Positions 1,173-25,313 of a stretch of 40,105 nucleotides of DNA are shown here, one piece after another. Under the pieces are notes generated by a model. It was not told the origin of the DNA. It searched no databases and saw only the letters and a list, made by a program, of their open reading frames with translations. The stretch is taken from positions 1 to 40,105 of the forward strand of contig NZ_SNUT01000010.1 of the NCBI RefSeq assembly GCF_012027615.1, in the 5' to 3' direction. The DNA is from Thermococcus sp. 21S7. GTDB lineage: Archaea > Methanobacteriota_B > Thermococci > Thermococcales > Thermococcaceae. Every line of letters begins with the position of its first letter. Positions within the stretch are counted from its first letter, which is position 1. Position numbers and translations under genes: made by a program.

Positions 1173-1749
1173 GATGGGTAGAGCACGTTCCTGAGTTCAT
1201 GGCACTGAAAATTGAGGATGCGTTCAAACGGGGCGCCAGGAACGTTAACTTCGTCGGCGGCGAGCCGACGCCCAACCTGACTTTCATTCTGGAAACCTGA
1301 GGTACGTGACCGTCCCGATTCCTGTCGTCTGGAACTCTAACATGTACATGAGCGAAGAAGCCATGAGGCTCCCCGATGGCGTGGTTGACGTTTATCTCGC
1401 CGATTTTAAGTGGGGAAACGACGTCTGCGCAGGGAAGTATTCGAGAGTCCTGAGGTACTGGAAGGTCGTGACGAGGAATTTCCTCCTCGCTAGGAGGCAC
1501 CTTGGAGCGGAGTTCATCATAAGGCACCTCGTGGTTCCGGGACACATCGAATGCTGCACGAGGCCTGTGCTCGAATGGATATCCAAGAACCTCGGACGCG
1601 ACGTGCGCCTCAACGTGATGTTCCAGTACCGGCCGGAATACAGGGCGGGTGAGCATCCGGAGATCAGCAGGAGGCTTAACAACGAGGAAATGCGAAAAGC
1701 CGCGGAGATGGTTGAGGAATTCGCCTTTAAAAACGCCCTGGTGGGCTAA
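1173..1749 (+). pseudogene. Radical SAM protein remnant (pyruvate formate-lyase activase-like), truncated and frameshifted
   Basis: Two consecutive frames together encode the middle and C-terminal part of a PflA-like radical SAM protein. The first holds RGARNVNFVGGEPT and ends at a TGA at 1298-1300. The second resumes at once with RYVTVPIPVVWNSNMYMS and runs to 1749. Restoring one C in the CC just before the TGA would read LETLRYVT without interruption, so a single-base deletion is the simplest explanation. The N-terminal part with the CxxxCxxC cluster ligands is missing, and coding similarity begins directly after the archaemetzincin stop. The gene is therefore doubly dead. The second half could still be translated as a 147-residue product from 1306, but it would have no cluster. 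Confidence 0.8.
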
Positions 1750-2425: not shown

Positions 2426-2887
2426 CTATGAACCACCCATAAGCTTTCTCGCTTCCTCAAGAACCTTCCCCGCGTGGCCCTTTGCCCGGACGTTGTGCTT
2501 TTCCCACACGATTTCTCCGTTCGGGTTGAATATGAACGTGCTCCTTATCACACCCTCGTACTCTTTCCCGTAGCGCTTTTTCCTGCCCCATGCACCGAGG
2601 GCCTTTATCAGCTCCGCCCCGGGGTCGCTGAGAAGCCTTACTCCCAGCCCGTGCTTCTCCTTGAATCGAATGTGGCTTTTCACGGAGTCCTTTGAGACGC
2701 CCACAACCTGAAAGCCAAGCTTTTCGAACTCCCCGAGCAGTTCCGTGAATTCCCTCGCCTCGGCCGTGCAGCCAGGCGTGTTGTCCTTTGGATAGACGTA
2801 GAGAACCGTCCATCTGCCACCCAGAACTTCGCGGAGTGAGACATCCCTTCCATCCTCATCGAAAACCCTAACCTCCAGCGGGTTCAT
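2426..2887 (-). CDS. bcp: Peroxiredoxin, Bcp/PrxQ type, single-cysteine variant
   Basis: This is a thiol peroxidase reducing hydrogen peroxide and alkyl hydroperoxides in the cytosol. The 153-residue thioredoxin-fold protein has the peroxidatic motif YPKDNTPGC with C40 as active cysteine. Many PrxQ enzymes carry the resolving cysteine five residues later (position 45). Here that residue is Arg, and the protein has no other cysteine, so it must be recycled by an external thiol. The gene is divergent from pyruvate kinase. Its promoter contains an inverted repeat nearly identical to that of feoABC, which suggests control by iron or a metal-dependent repressor. Length and motif order are normal for the family. 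Confidence 0.93.
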   Translation of the reverse strand: MNPLEVRVFDEDGRDVSLREVLGGRWTVLYVYPKDNTPGCTAEAREFTELLGEFEKLGFQVVGVSKDSVKSHIRFKEKHGLGVRLLSDPGAELIKALGAWGRKKRYGKEYEGVIRSTFIFNPNGEIVWEKHNVRAKGHAGKVLEEARKLMGGS

Positions 2888-2903: not shown

Positions 2904-2930
2904 TTAGGGCATCCTAATTCATAAATCTTT
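2904..2930 (-). promoter_or_regulatory. Peroxiredoxin promoter with DtxR-like operator
   Basis: Read on the minus strand, a TATA-like GATTTATGAA is followed by TTAGG-ATGC-CCTAA (plus strand 2904-2917), 17 bases before the start codon. Extended, the site reads GAATTAGGATGCCCTAAC. It matches the feoA site at 25102-25118 in the arms and in the flanking GAAT and C. Its position between TATA box and start fits a repressor. Confidence 0.65.
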
Positions 2931-2982: not shown

Positions 2983-4419
2983 ATGAGGCTCCCATCCCAT
3001 AAAACCAAGATAGTGGCCACCATAGGCCCCGCCTCAATGAAGAGAACGACCTTTGAGGCCATGGTGAAAGCGGGACTGAGCGTCGCGAGGATAAACTTCG
3101 CCCACGGCGACCTTGAGCAGCATGCAAGGACGGTTGCTATGGTGAGGGAAGTTTCGGAGAGGCTCAACCGCCCGGTGGCAATTCTCGGGGATCTCCCGGG
3201 AGTAAAAATCCGCGTGGGGGAGATTCTCAACGGTTCCGTAACACTGAGACGGTGGCAGACCGTCGTTCTGACAACGAGGGACATCGTTGGGACAGAAGGT
3301 GAGATACCCGTGGAGTTCAAGGAGTTCCCCAAAATGGTGTCGAAGGGGGACATCATCTACCTGAGCGATGGCTTCATAGCGCTGCGCGTTGAGGAGGTTC
3401 GCGGTCAGGACGTCGTCTGCAAGGTTCTCGTCGGCGGAACGCTGTTCTCGCACAAGGGCATCAACGTGCCGAAGGCAAGAATGGCCATAGATGCAGTAAC
3501 GGACAGGGATTTGAGGTTCATCGAATTCGCGATTGAACACGGCATTGACGCCGTCGGCATAAGCTTCGTGGGTTCGGCCTACGACGTTCTCAAGGTCAGG
3601 AGATTCGTGGAGGAGAGGAACGGGAGTCTCTTCATAATCGCGAAGATAGAGAGGCCGGACGCCGTGAAGAACTTCGACGACATACTCTGTGCCGCCGACG
3701 GCATCATGATAGCCAGGGGCGACCTCGGTGTTGAAATGCCCATCGAGAAGCTTCCCGTCCTTCAGAAGAAGCTCATACACAAGGCCAACGTTGCCGGAAA
3801 GCCCGTGATAACCGCTACACAGATGCTGGAGAGCATGACCGAAGAGAAGCTGCCCACCAGGGCGGAGGTCACGGACGTGGCGAACGCGATTTTAGACGGC
3901 ACCGACGCGGTTATGCTCTCCGAGGAAACGGCGGTCGGCAAGTACCCCGTCGATGCGGTCAGGATGATGGCACGGATAGCCAAGACAATAGAGGCCTACA
4001 GGGATTCCCAGTGGTCCGCTCGCATAATCGAGTGGAAGATGACCCGCTGGAGCGAGAAGGGCCCGAAGAAGGGCACGATAAAGGACACGATAGCCCGGAG
4101 CATTATAGAGGCGCTGAACTCAATGGACATCAAGTACATACTCACCCCCACCAGAACGGGAGAAACGGCAAGGCTCATATCGCGCTTCAAGCCCAAGCAG
4201 TGGGTTCTGGCCTTCGCCACCGACGGACGCGTCGCGAGAAAGCTGATGTTTTCGTACGGTGTCTACCCGTTCGTCGTCAGCGAGACCAGCGAGGAGGAGA
4301 TACTGCGCCTCATACGGGGACTGGGATTGGTCAGGCAGAACGATACGGTCCTTCTGACCAAGGGAACGCCGATAGGGAAAACGGTCGGCACGAACACCAT
4401 AAGGATATTCACCGTCTGA
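2983..4419 (+). CDS. pyk: Pyruvate kinase
   Basis: Pyruvate kinase converts phosphoenolpyruvate and ADP to pyruvate and ATP at the end of glycolysis. The 478-residue protein starts at the ATG at 2983, preceded by AGGTGA (2973-2978). An upstream in-frame TTG at 2953 has no ribosome binding site. The sequence shows the N-terminal [12 protein letters not shown] and ARINFAHGD blocks, the B-domain from about 70 to 165, and the catalytic core [12 protein letters not shown] with K221 and E223. It also has IARGDLGVE with the metal ligand D247, and the substrate helix TATQMLESM. The C-terminal allosteric domain is complete, so the enzyme should be functional. The trmY gene follows on the same strand after about 26 bases and may be cotranscribed. 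Confidence 0.97.
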
Positions 4420-22611: not shown

Positions 22612-22866
22612 TCATTTCTGTGCATCAATCCGAAATTCGGTCACCGCGTACACCTTTCCCTTGAACCTGAAGCACGAGCCGGGGCAGACGCTTTTCAGAG
22701 GGCAGCTTTGGCAGGCGGAGCCGCCAAGCTCCACCCGCTCAACGTACCCCATGCTCTCCAAGACGCTGAGGGCCCCCTCGACCTCCTCCCTGGGTATCGA
22801 AAGCTCCCTCGCTATCTCTTCGACGCTTTTCCCTTCCTTTATAAGGTTAAGTATCCTCTCCAGCAT
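22612..22866 (-). CDS. feoC: FeoC-like winged-helix protein with four-cysteine cluster
   Basis: This 84-residue protein is the third gene of the feo operon, starting 9 bases after feoB. The first 45 residues form a winged helix (EEIARELSIPREEVEGALSVLESMG). C52, C55, C61 and C65 (CQSC and CPGSC) then form a likely iron-sulfur cluster site, as in bacterial FeoC. FeoC may stabilise FeoB or sense iron or oxygen at the transporter. The order feoA-feoB-feoC and the motif agree. Function as a transcription factor is possible but unproven. Confidence 0.8.
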   Translation of the reverse strand: MLERILNLIKEGKSVEEIARELSIPREEVEGALSVLESMGYVERVELGGSACQSCPLKSVCPGSCFRFKGKVYAVTEFRIDAQK

Positions 22867-22875
22867 CCTTATCCC

Positions 22876-24852
22876 TCAGTATCCCAGAGCCGTCCCTATG
22901 TTCCATACGAGTATTCCCACGATGCTCGCAAGGCCTATCATGTAGACGACGGTAAAGACTGCCCACTTCCAGTTGCTCTCGGCCCTTATTGCCCCTATCG
23001 TGGCGATGCACGGGACGTACAGCGTTGTGACGAGGGCCAGCACAAAGGCCTGAAGGGAGGACATTGAGTTGACTATCTCGTCGACGCTGCCGTAGATTAT
23101 GCCGTAGGTGGAGATGACGTTCTCCTTGGCGATGATTCCAAAGAGCAGACTCACCGCCGCCTTCCAGTCGAGTCCCATGAGGCGCATGTAGGGCTCGAAG
23201 AAGGCCCCCAGTCTCTCGGCGTAGCTTCCCCCCGTTCCTATCTCAACAGGGTAGGTGCTGAGGTACCAGATGACCACCGAACCCAGCAGGATTACCGTTC
23301 CCGCCTTCTTGACGAACTCCTTGCTCCTCTCCCACGAGTGGAGCGCCACAGTCTTCCACGAGGGTATGAGGTACTCCGGCAGCTCTATTATGAAGGGACT
23401 CTCCTCTCCCCTGACCACGAATCTGCTGAAGAGCCACGCCATGAGCAGTGCCAGCAGTATGGCCGTTGCGTATATGCTTACCGCGACCAGCGCCTGATTC
23501 CCCACGAAGAAAGCCCCCGCCAGGAAGCTTATGACGCTCAGCCTGGCGCTGCACGGTATGAGCGGGTTGACCAGCATCGTTATCAGCCTATCCCTCTCCT
23601 CATCCAGGGTTCTCGTTGCCATGACTGCCGGAACGTTGCAGCCGAAGGCGAGGACGAGGGGAATGAAGCTCTTCCCGGGGAGACCGAACTTCCTCATGAT
23701 GCGCTCCATGACGACCGCGGCCCTCGCCATGTAGCCCACATCTTCGAGGATCGACATGGCGAGGAACAGCAGGAAGACCAGCGGGAAGAAGCTCAGGACC
23801 GAGCCTACACCGGCGATGATGCCGTCAACGAGGAGGCCGCGGAGCGTTTCGTTGGCGATGTGAGGCCCCAGCCACTCGCCAAAGGCGGAAAATGCATCAT
23901 CCAGCAGGCCCTGCAGGGGCAGTCCGAGGGCGAAGACGAACTTGAACAGGACGTAGAACACGGCAAAGAGGGCAATGAGGCCGTAAACCGGGTGCGTGAG
24001 GAACCTGTCCAGCTGGTCGCTGAAGGTCTCGCCCTGCTCGTGGGAGTACCTCACGAAGCGGTGCATGAGGCCGTCTATAAACTCGTACTTCTGGCTGGCT
24101 ATGATCAGATCCATCGCCCTCTTGTAGCGCTCCTCCACCTCGGCTATGTGCCCCATGATTTCGTCGAGCTTCTCCTTTCCGAGGTGCCTGAGAACGAGCT
24201 TTATCACGCCGTCGTCCCTCTGAAGGAGCTTCACCGCGAGCCATCTGAGGTTGTACTCCCCTGCGAGCTTGGTATGCTTGAGGGCTTCGATTATGTGCCC
24301 TATTTCCCTCTCGACCTCCGGGTCATAGGTGGGAACAGTGGGGCTGGTCTTGATCTCGCCGTTCGCCATCAGACGTATCTTCTCCTTGAGTTCCTCCAGT
24401 CCGGCGCCTTCCTTCGCGCTCATCGCTACGACCGGAACGCCTAAGAGCTCCTCCATCCTCCGGACGTTTATCTCGATGCCGCGCTTCTCGGCGAGGTCGG
24501 TTTTGTTGAGCGCTATTATAACGTTCCTCAGGCCCATCTCAAGTATCTCCATCGTCAGGAAGAGATTCCTCATGAGGGCAGTCGCGTCAACGACGTTCAC
24601 AACGACATCGGCGCTCCCCTTGAGAAGGAAATCCCTGGCAACCAGCTCGTCAACGGAATGAGCTGTCAGGGAGTATATTCCAGGCAGATCAACCACGAGA
24701 AACTTCTGGCCTTTGTATTCAAGAATCCCCTCCTTCTTCTCAACGGTCACGCCGGGCCAGTTGCCAACGTGCTGGCGCATCCCAGTGAGGGAGTTGAAGA
24801 CGGTGGTCTTTCCAACGTTGGGGTTCCCTGCCAGAGCCACTACCCGCATCAT
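22876..24852 (-). CDS. feoB: Ferrous iron transporter FeoB
   Basis: This 658-residue membrane protein is the main Fe2+ importer under anaerobic conditions. The N-terminal G domain has G1 GNPNVGKT (9-16), the switch [13 protein letters not shown]3 DLPGIYSL and G4 NKTD. A helical GDI-like segment follows to about 265. The C-terminal half has about ten membrane helices with the paired gate and core regions, including [19 protein letters not shown] and [13 protein letters not shown]. The start ATG at 24852 is chosen because GAGGTG lies six bases before it; GTG at 24861 would overlap that site. It lies 10 bases after feoA. Confidence 0.96.
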
Positions 24853-24862
24853 GATGGGCACC

Positions 24863-25090
24863 TCACAGCTTTCTTACCATGACCCTGCCCGCCATTCCCC
24901 GTCCTATGGCGAACCTTACGCCTCCCACGGAGATTATTATGGGCCCCAGCGAGTGTGACTCCAGCACCTGAACCGTCGCCCCTGGGGTCAGCCCCATTGA
25001 GACGAGCTTCCCCCTGGCGTTATGGCCGCCGAGGATGTTGACGACGACACCCTTCTCGCCGGGCCTCATGCTGTTTAAAGGTACAATCAT
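24863..25090 (-). CDS. feoA: Ferrous iron transport protein FeoA
   Basis: This 75-residue SH3-like protein assists FeoB at the cytosolic side. The sequence has the family core: [32 protein letters not shown] and [15 protein letters not shown]. The ATG at 25090 is preceded by GGTGAT at the usual distance. Upstream codons GTG 25099 and ATG 25096 lie within that binding site. It is the first gene of feoABC, and its promoter carries a TTAGG-N4-CCTAA operator. Confidence 0.93.
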
Positions 25091-25101
25091 GAGCATCACC
25101 G

Positions 25102-25150
25102 TTAGGCTTTCCTAATTCGATATTCCAATCTCTCGATGGCCTTAAAAAGC
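25102..25150 (-). promoter_or_regulatory. feoABC promoter with DtxR-like operator
   Basis: On the plus strand TTAGG-CTTT-CCTAA (25102-25115), read on the minus strand as GAATTAGGAAAGCCTAAC, lies 11 bases before the feoA start codon. It fits the TTAGG-N4-CCTAA core of iron-dependent DtxR/IdeR-type repressor boxes. A further half-site GCCTAAC is at 25159-25165, and a TATA-like CTTTTTAAGG at 25140-25149 (minus strand). Iron-dependent repression of uptake is the expected outcome. Confidence 0.65.
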
Positions 25151-25313
25151 TTTGGTGAGCCTAACAAAACCCAGGGGTTCGAGATCAGAAATCATGGGGT
25201 TCTGAGATGTTAAAGACGCGGGTCCGGTTATTGGAAGCCGGGTTAAAACTTTGGAAAGGTATTTAAGGGATTGAAGAGAATACAATTGATTGAATTTCGG
25301 AGGTGCATCGATT

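What the first reader, a model, noticed from the sequence alone, without database searches (positions are those of the whole stretch)
2904..2920. Peroxiredoxin and feoABC share one operator
GAATTAGGATGCCCTAAC before bcp and GAATTAGGAAAGCCTAAC before feoA differ only at the spacer bases. Both lie 11-17 bases before a start codon and fit TTAGG-N4-CCTAA, a DtxR/IdeR-like core. This ties iron uptake and peroxide removal to one regulator.
Basis: partly seen in the sequence, partly recalled or inferred. Interest (0 to 1): 0.55.

Follow-up and report, generated by a model that had tools for sequence, protein, structure and literature searches.

The report
Shared iron-repressor operator, Thermococcus bcp and feoA
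In heat-loving Thermococcus archaea, a peroxide-removing enzyme and the iron importer carry the same DNA switch, which very probably belongs to the cell's iron sensor and also sits in front of several other iron, sulfur and repair genes.

Summary
TTAGG-N4-CCTAA lies 16 bp before bcp (2904-2917) and 11 bp before feoA (25102-25115). The genome has 11 exact copies at ten promoter regions, none inside a gene. All 94 family genomes carry it: 985 copies against 258 for the reversed control. Ten genomes of the same class outside the family show no excess. It is exact before 50 of 60 bcp orthologs, with a freely varying spacer, and before 29 of the 30 feoA genes examined.

The best candidate regulator is the short DtxR-family protein (TK0107/PF0851 type by recall). 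Its own promoter carries the element with exactly one base off in 39 of 39 genomes read. The 14-bp element equals one half of the bacterial 19-bp IdeR iron box; five family genomes also hold perfect 19-bp boxes. Fur is not needed: 20 of the 50 exact bcp operators are in genomes without a strong Fur match.

DtxR control of feoAB in Pyrococcus and archaeal DtxR regulons are already published (recalled). Conserved bcp, endonuclease IV and SipA/IssA-family targets and the tuned dtxR site may extend them. Binding and the peroxide response are untested.

The parts
2904..2917 (-). bcp operator TTAGGATGCCCTAA (18-mer 2903-2920), between TATA-like box and ribosome-binding site
   Evidence: same element exact in 50 of 60 bcp orthologs, own included
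2919..2930 (-). BRE/TATA-like element AAAGATTTATGA directly upstream of the bcp operator
   Evidence: Sequence; consensus aAAggtTTAtgA in 26 aligned bcp promoters. Promoter function inferred
2426..2887 (-). bcp/PrxQ-type peroxiredoxin, 153 aa, one cysteine
   Evidence: Pfam AhpC-TSA 1.2e-33; PrxQ models best in NCBIfam but under their cut-offs; translation
2983..4419 (+). divergent pyruvate kinase; operator lies 65 bp before its ATG. Control by the operator possible but not indicated
   Evidence: Pfam PK 6.8e-112; gap 62-67 bp in four genomes
25102..25115 (-). proximal feoA operator TTAGGAAAGCCTAA, 11 bp before the ATG
   Evidence: exact in 29 of the 30 feoA promoters examined
25140..25150 (-). 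TATA-like GCTTTTTAAGG of feoA, between the two operators
   Evidence: Sequence, conserved in 30 aligned promoters. Promoter function inferred
25151..25164 (-). distal feoA site TTAGGCTCACCAAA (one base off), abutting the TATA-like box
   Evidence: present in 28 of 30 promoters: 22 by script, six by reading the output
24863..25090 (-). feoA
   Evidence: Pfam FeoA 1.9e-20
22876..24861 (-). feoB
   Evidence: Pfam FeoB_N 2.8e-65
22612..22866 (-). feoC-like small winged-helix protein
   Evidence: FeoC 20.9 bits, just under its 21-bit cut-off; TrmB scores higher, 28.3 bits

Best explanation
TTAGG-N4-CCTAA is the operator of the family's short (145-aa, two-domain) DtxR-type metal-dependent repressor. 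One dimer binds the 14-bp site, each subunit one pentamer. At bcp the site lies between the TATA-like box and the start codon; at feoA one copy abuts the TATA-like box and another lies near the start. Metal-loaded repressor would therefore block recruitment or escape of RNA polymerase. Loss of the metal would free feoAB, bcp and the other operator-bearing promoters together (eight further promoter regions with exact copies in this genome). Loss could follow iron shortage, capture of Fe2+ as iron sulfide, or oxidation of Fe2+ by peroxide. The regulator's own site is kept one base off consensus, giving looser self-repression. Shown here: the shared element, its conservation, its promoter position, its specificity to the family and its presence at dtxR. 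Inferred: DtxR as binder, repression as the mode, Fe2+ as the main metal, and peroxide release.
For: Enrichment over control in 91 of 94 family genomes (equal in 2, lower in 1), 985 against 258; no excess in 10 genomes outside the family, 12 against 47 (my sums). Sites avoid genes: 5 of 100 inside, against 306 of 384 for all other N4 pentamer palindromes in the same loci. bcp half-sites carry about 2 bits per base, spacers 0.2-0.6 bits, with 19 spacers among 26 promoters. Repeated targets in nine genomes are metal uptake and Fe-S handling: feoA in 9, a 4Fe-4S/MinD-like ATPase in 8, radical SAM in 7, an FeMo-cofactor-domain protein in 7, SipA/IssA-family proteins and a ZnuA-like binding protein in 6 each, ZIP and endonuclease IV in 5 each (own-genome SipA/IssA and ZnuA sites have one mismatch). 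dtxR promoter: 39 of 39 read with exactly one mismatch. The protein has both DtxR domains and E9, E12, H78, C101, E104, H105 invariant in 11 aligned. The site equals one half of the 19-bp IdeR box; one copy (L009) matches it 14 of 14. TATA-like boxes upstream in 64 of 77 sites, 18 expected from shuffles.
Against: No binding or expression data for bcp were found. Reports disagree with a simple iron-repression model. In T. gammatolerans under cadmium, the DtxR gene and iron transporters rose but no oxidative-stress gene changed (PMC3407056, passages). sipA is induced by sulfide only when iron is sufficient (PMC5524996, passages). In T. kodakarensis both feoAB operons rose after iron loading (PMC12827226, section 3.5). 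On sulfur, T. onnurineus SipA rose while peroxiredoxins fell (PMC4463584, passages). The protein scores better as MntR than DtxR, below both cut-offs, so manganese is possible. A second, weaker match to the DtxR DNA-binding domain passes Pfam's cut-off in this genome (28.7 bits, 355-aa frame, L013) and was not studied. The bcp site is degraded (2-3 mismatches) in 4 of 60 genomes. For dtxR the reversed control reached one mismatch in 1 of 39 promoters and two in 1.
Confidence: 0.78

Rival explanations
1. A Fur/PerR-type regulator, not DtxR, binds the element and responds to peroxide.
For: The own genome has a Fur gene. A Fur gene lies within about 2 kb of bcp in 14 genomes, one of them with a broken bcp (coordinates).
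Against: 20 of 50 exact bcp operators are in genomes with no Fur match below E 1e-10, 18 of them at least 90% complete. Fur of T. kodakarensis is reported as having no role in the global iron response (Louvel 2009 as cited in PMC12827226).
Confidence: 0.06
2. Another unnamed redox or sulfur regulator uses the element; the copy at dtxR only means that dtxR is one of its targets.
For: Targets overlap families induced by elemental sulfur (PMC6981617). sipA responds to sulfide only with sufficient iron.
Against: The 14-mer is exactly half of the IdeR box, and perfect 19-bp IdeR boxes occur in five genomes of the family. A DtxR match is present in 73 of 74 good genomes. Recalled: P. furiosus DtxR binds the feoAB promoter.
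Confidence: 0.12
3. The element works as RNA: a 5-bp stem with a 4-base loop near the translation start.
For: Stem and loop sizes suit a hairpin; 50 of 77 sites with a near start end 11-20 bp before it. Seven of the 39 dtxR copies change a G-C pair to a G-U pair, which RNA would tolerate.
Against: Half-sites are fixed while the loop varies, without covariation in the aligned bcp promoters. In 32 of 39 dtxR promoters the changed base breaks a pair without compensation. The distal feoA site lies upstream of the TATA-like box.
Confidence: 0.03
4. Chance similarity of two promoter palindromes.
For: With 1-2 mismatches allowed the motif is not more frequent than controls.
Against: Exact-copy enrichment, conservation and avoidance of genes.
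Confidence: 0.01

Closest known systems
Archaeal DtxR-family iron regulons (FetR; Leyn and Rodionov 2015, recalled; paper not held)
   Same: By recall: DtxR-type regulators, palindromic operators, feoAB, ZIP and TroA-type transporters as targets
   Different: Whether their Thermococcales regulon already lists bcp, endonuclease IV, IssA or the one-off dtxR site could not be checked
Pyrococcus furiosus DtxR PF0851 (Zhu et al. 2013, recalled; not held; cited in PMC12827226 and PMC8516115)
   Same: By recall: represses feoAB with iron and binds its promoter
   Different: All nine genomes of genus g3, which I suspect to be Pyrococcus (names are not given), lack a close bcp ortholog, so bcp control would be a feature of other genera
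Bacterial IdeR/DtxR iron box TTAGGTTAGSCTAACCTAA (PMC10317159, passages)
   Same: Pentamers TTAGG/CCTAA and their N4 spacing; overlaps the promoter
   Different: Single 14-bp site instead of two overlapping ones; the regulator lacks the third SH3-like domain
PerR peroxide regulon (recalled)
   Same: Peroxiredoxin and iron genes under one metal-dependent repressor
   Different: Different protein family and different operator

Membership tests
DtxR/IdeR-type iron regulon | Regulator with Fe_dep_repress and Fe_dep_repr_C domains encoded in the genome | tested here: met
   4e-17 and 1.9e-18; match in 86 of 94 genomes, 73 of 74 good ones
DtxR/IdeR-type iron regulon | Operator pentamers TTAGG/CCTAA in iron-box register | tested here: met
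   14-mer equals positions 1-14 of the 19-bp box; N4 preferred
DtxR/IdeR-type iron regulon | Full 19-bp double-dimer box | tested here: not met
   bcp and feoA have the 14-bp half only; no double box in the own genome within 2 mismatches, 12 of 94 family genomes have one
DtxR/IdeR-type iron regulon | C-terminal SH3-like third domain of classical DtxR/IdeR | tested here: not met
   145 aa, only the two domains found, as in MntR
DtxR/IdeR-type iron regulon | Iron-uptake genes among targets | tested here: met
   feoA in 9 of 9 genomes; ZIP in 5, ZnuA-like in 6
DtxR/IdeR-type iron regulon | Fe-type rather than Mn-type metal ligand set | tested here: inconclusive
   Cys101 replaces MntR Glu99 and is invariant in 11 aligned of 30 fetched (ligand numbering recalled), but NCBIfam scores MntR higher, under cut-off
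DtxR/IdeR-type iron regulon | Metal-dependent DNA binding | not testable with these tools
   Needs purified protein
Fur/PerR regulon | Fur-family regulator present wherever the operator is | tested here: not met
   20 of 50 exact bcp operators without a Fur match below E 1e-10

The most novel reading that the evidence does not exclude
The short DtxR of Thermococcaceae is the missing regulator of the 'secondary' elemental-sulfur response (SipA/IssA, FeMo-cofactor-domain proteins, Fe-S ATPases, radical SAM protein, feoAB) and also governs peroxide defence (bcp, endonuclease IV). One protein would read sulfide, iron and peroxide through a single variable, free Fe2+. The strength of each operator (perfect, one-off, doubled 19-bp) would set the order in which promoters open, with the regulator's own site kept deliberately weak.
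Probability: 0.3. Interest if true: 0.7.

Novelty: new member of a known kind. Interest (0 to 1): 0.5.

Why it matters
It turns two matching promoter palindromes into a predicted regulon in a genetically tractable group of hyperthermophiles, with a named candidate regulator and an operator that can be tested base by base. It links iron uptake, Fe-S storage, peroxide removal and abasic-site repair. It offers a regulator for the iron-sulfur part of the elemental-sulfur response. It also shows the bacterial iron-box grammar used in archaea as half-boxes and, at some accessory loci, as whole boxes.

Tried and rejected
One-mismatch sites as a general predictor: 51 sites with up to one mismatch against 88 for the control in the own genome, and 13 of the 36 one-mismatch sites that I classified lie inside genes; so they were used only where conserved. 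Four of the 40 one-mismatch sites were not classified. Glutamate synthase as a target: the protein I first guessed to be one is an Mrp/NBP35-type ATPase. The pyruvate kinase promoter as the real target: its distance varies a little (62-67 bp) and it lies on the far side, whereas the bcp distance is 16-17 bp. A spacer of 9, the outer-pentamer distance of the IdeR box: no match in the own genome. Named bcp loci from genome contigs were used only to learn that the closest relatives are Thermococcus; they do not enter any count.

Rows dropped: three broken or partial bcp copies (G039, G028, G063) and genomes with only distant peroxiredoxins; one dtxR locus that the script could not orient (L066); six feoA loci missed by the script and read. 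The feoA set is the best 30 of 91 genomes with a match; the dtxR set is the best 30 plus ten chosen from other genera, of 86. Regulon targets come from the own genome and eight relatives; one of their 101 exact sites (in G007) was not fetched. The Fisher value treats sites of related genomes as independent and is only indicative. The two literature sources central to novelty are not held (the DOI was recalled wrongly). Ten paper searches were made; I saw no listed title or abstract on DtxR control of bcp, but the library is partial.

Full report
WHAT WAS CHECKED. The 18-mers before bcp and feoA are present as described and differ only in the 4-bp spacer. bcp is an AhpC/TSA-type peroxiredoxin with PrxQ models as best NCBIfam matches (under cut-off); the feo genes are feoA, feoB and a feoC match just under cut-off. 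The exact motif occurs 11 times in the 2.37-Mb genome, against 4 for the reversed control. With one mismatch it is no longer enriched (51 against 88), so the recognised sequence is strict.

POSITION. A codon-model gene caller placed 0 of 11 exact sites inside genes in this genome and 4 of 100 in nine genomes (one site of G007 was not fetched). A second count over the same loci gave 5 of 100 inside, while 306 of 384 other pentamer-N4 palindromes lay inside genes. In 77 of the 100 sites a predicted start codon follows within 25 bp; 64 of these 77 have a TATA-like box within 40 bp upstream of the operator, where shuffled upstream sequence gave 18. The site therefore usually lies downstream of a TATA-like box, which suits repression. 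A spacer of 4 is preferred: 11 of 16 and 15 of 25 matches with spacers 0-14 in two genomes.

CONSERVATION. All 94 genomes of the family have the motif, 985 against 258 control matches, higher in 91, equal in 2, lower in 1. Ten genomes of the same class outside the family had 12 against 47 (my sums). I examined 60 bcp orthologs, own included, the 30 best by loci and the other 30 by fetched stretches: 50 exact, 6 with one mismatch, 1 with two, 3 with three; the reversed control never came closer than two mismatches. In 26 aligned bcp promoters the half-sites are nearly fixed while the spacer takes 19 forms, which shows selection on the half-sites. Of the 30 feoA promoters with the best protein match, 29 are exact and one has one mismatch; 28 also keep a second, one-off site next to the TATA-like box (22 by script, six by reading).

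THE REGULATOR. The genome has one strong DtxR-family gene (G000:C4:34001-34435); a second match to the DNA-binding domain is weak (28.7 bits, just over the cut-off, in a 355-aa frame) and was not studied. The strong one has the DNA-binding and metal-binding domains but no third domain. Residues equivalent to the metal ligands (numbering recalled from MntR and DtxR) are invariant in 11 aligned proteins, with Cys101 where MntR has Glu99. Its own promoter carries the element in 39 of 39 genomes read, always with exactly one mismatch. Thermococcus has TTTGG-N4-CCTAA (29); the ten promoters read from other genera have TTAGG-N4-TCTAA (7) or TTAGG-N4-ACTAA (3). For this set the reversed control reached one mismatch once and two mismatches once. 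Three different single-base departures in a site never found perfect among the 39 suggest that a weakened autoregulatory operator is kept; this is inference.

THE OPERATOR GRAMMAR. The review PMC10317159 (passages) gives the IdeR box as TTAGGTTAGSCTAACCTAA, bound by two dimers, each subunit contacting one of four CCTAA repeats. Its first 14 positions are TTAGG-N4-SCTAA. Hence the Thermococcus site is one dimer's share of that box (pairing of repeats 1 and 3 is my inference). The copy in L009 is identical to it. Perfect 19-bp boxes exist in five family genomes, and 12 of 94 have one within two mismatches, none for the control. I read one locus for each of these 12 genomes. Four lie beside a second feoA (L315, L317, L318, L320). 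Seven lie beside a KaiC-like ATPase gene (L313, L316, L319, L321, L322, L323, L324), four of them also beside a 189-aa FeoA-domain protein (with a possible HTH, a weak match only) and an FeoB-like GTPase (Pfam was run on proteins of L313, L315 and L322 only). One (L314) lies beside neither.

THE REGULON. Across nine genomes (own, G002, G004-G007, G022, G031, G071), clusters of similar proteins with the site within 130 bp of the start are: feoA (9), a MinD-like ATPase with 4Fe-4S domain (8), a radical SAM protein (7), an FeMo-cofactor-domain protein (7), SipA/IssA-family proteins (6), a ZnuA-like binding protein (6), ZIP (5), endonuclease IV (5), bcp (4), UbiA (4), Mrp/NBP35 (3), TYW1 (3), an AhpC-like peroxiredoxin (2), a CoA-disulfide-reductase/NADH-oxidase-like flavoprotein (2), a FolE2-family GTP cyclohydrolase (2) and a ferredoxin (2) (in the own genome the SipA/IssA, ZnuA, Mrp, TYW1 and cyclohydrolase sites have one mismatch; many further clusters occur, most of them in one or two genomes). 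Distances to the start are nearly constant in several clusters (ZIP 2 bp in five genomes, endonuclease IV 17-18, radical SAM 12-14) and vary in others (SipA/IssA 18-87, ZnuA 1-69).

LINK TO PUBLISHED EXPRESSION. In Palaeococcus pacificus on elemental sulfur, 4 of the 10 most induced genes (SipA, an Fe-Mo cofactor-binding protein, two CobQ-type ATPases with Fe-S domain) are of families that carry the operator here, and feoAB, a radical SAM protein and Mrp/NBP35 also rise (PMC6981617, passages and tables). This is a match of families, not of accessions. It fits removal of Fe2+ by sulfide, as proposed for DtxR and FeoB in a methanogen (PMC8516115, passages). Against a simple model: sipA needs sufficient iron for its sulfide response (PMC5524996, passages); iron loading raised feoAB, with peroxiredoxin Tk0537, in T. 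kodakarensis (PMC12827226, section 3.5); cadmium raised the DtxR ortholog and iron transporters but no oxidative-stress gene in T. gammatolerans (PMC3407056, passages); SipA and peroxiredoxins moved in opposite directions in T. onnurineus on sulfur (PMC4463584, passages). Whether any of those peroxiredoxins is the bcp ortholog was not established here.

FUR. Forty of 94 genomes have a Fur match below E 1e-10 (my count). Twenty of the 50 exact bcp operators are in genomes without one, 18 of them at least 90% complete. Fur is thus not required, although its gene is a neighbour of bcp in 14 genomes (one with a broken bcp).

NOVELTY. DtxR control of feoAB in Pyrococcus (Zhu 2013) and archaeal DtxR regulons (Leyn and Rodionov 2015) are recalled; neither was readable here. 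I therefore file the system as a new member of a known kind. The bcp, endonuclease IV and SipA/IssA-family membership, the one-off dtxR site and the half-box/whole-box relation are the parts that may be new.

Noticed in passing
G000:C8:22889-22902 and 23876-23889 (L237): Two FeMo-cofactor-domain proteins with glycine-rich tails (152 and 205 aa; the latter with the proline-rich then W/G/R-rich tail described for IssA/SipA) each have a one-mismatch operator 20 and 56 bp before the start.
   Followed up: partly
L313, L316, L319, L321, L322, L323, L324: A KaiC-like ATPase gene (about 250 aa) lies next to perfect or near-perfect 19-bp iron boxes, in four loci (L319, L321, L322, L323) with a second, roughly 230-aa protein of no Pfam family where scanned, and in four (L319, L322, L323, L324) with a FeoA-domain protein and FeoB-like GTPase beside it; function unknown.
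   Followed up: partly
G020, G024, G028, G030, G033, G042, G044, G046, G055, G068, G069, G074, G077, G081: A Fur-family gene lies within about 2 kb of bcp on the opposite strand (coordinates; bcp is broken in G028).
   Followed up: no
window 2426-2887: The Bcp protein has a single cysteine (in PGCTAEA), so the usual PrxQ resolving cysteine five residues on is missing (PrxQ pattern recalled).
   Followed up: no
G000:C2:153971-154078 (L002, L003): A second feoA in the own genome has three sites in 108 bp: two exact and one with one mismatch.
   Followed up: partly
L034, L026, L039, L050: Four bcp promoters have lost the operator (2-3 mismatches), three of them with a recognisable decayed copy in place, although DtxR is kept.
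   Followed up: no
window 1306-1749: Looks like the remnant of a radical SAM gene cut at its 5' end, read only by eye.
   Followed up: no
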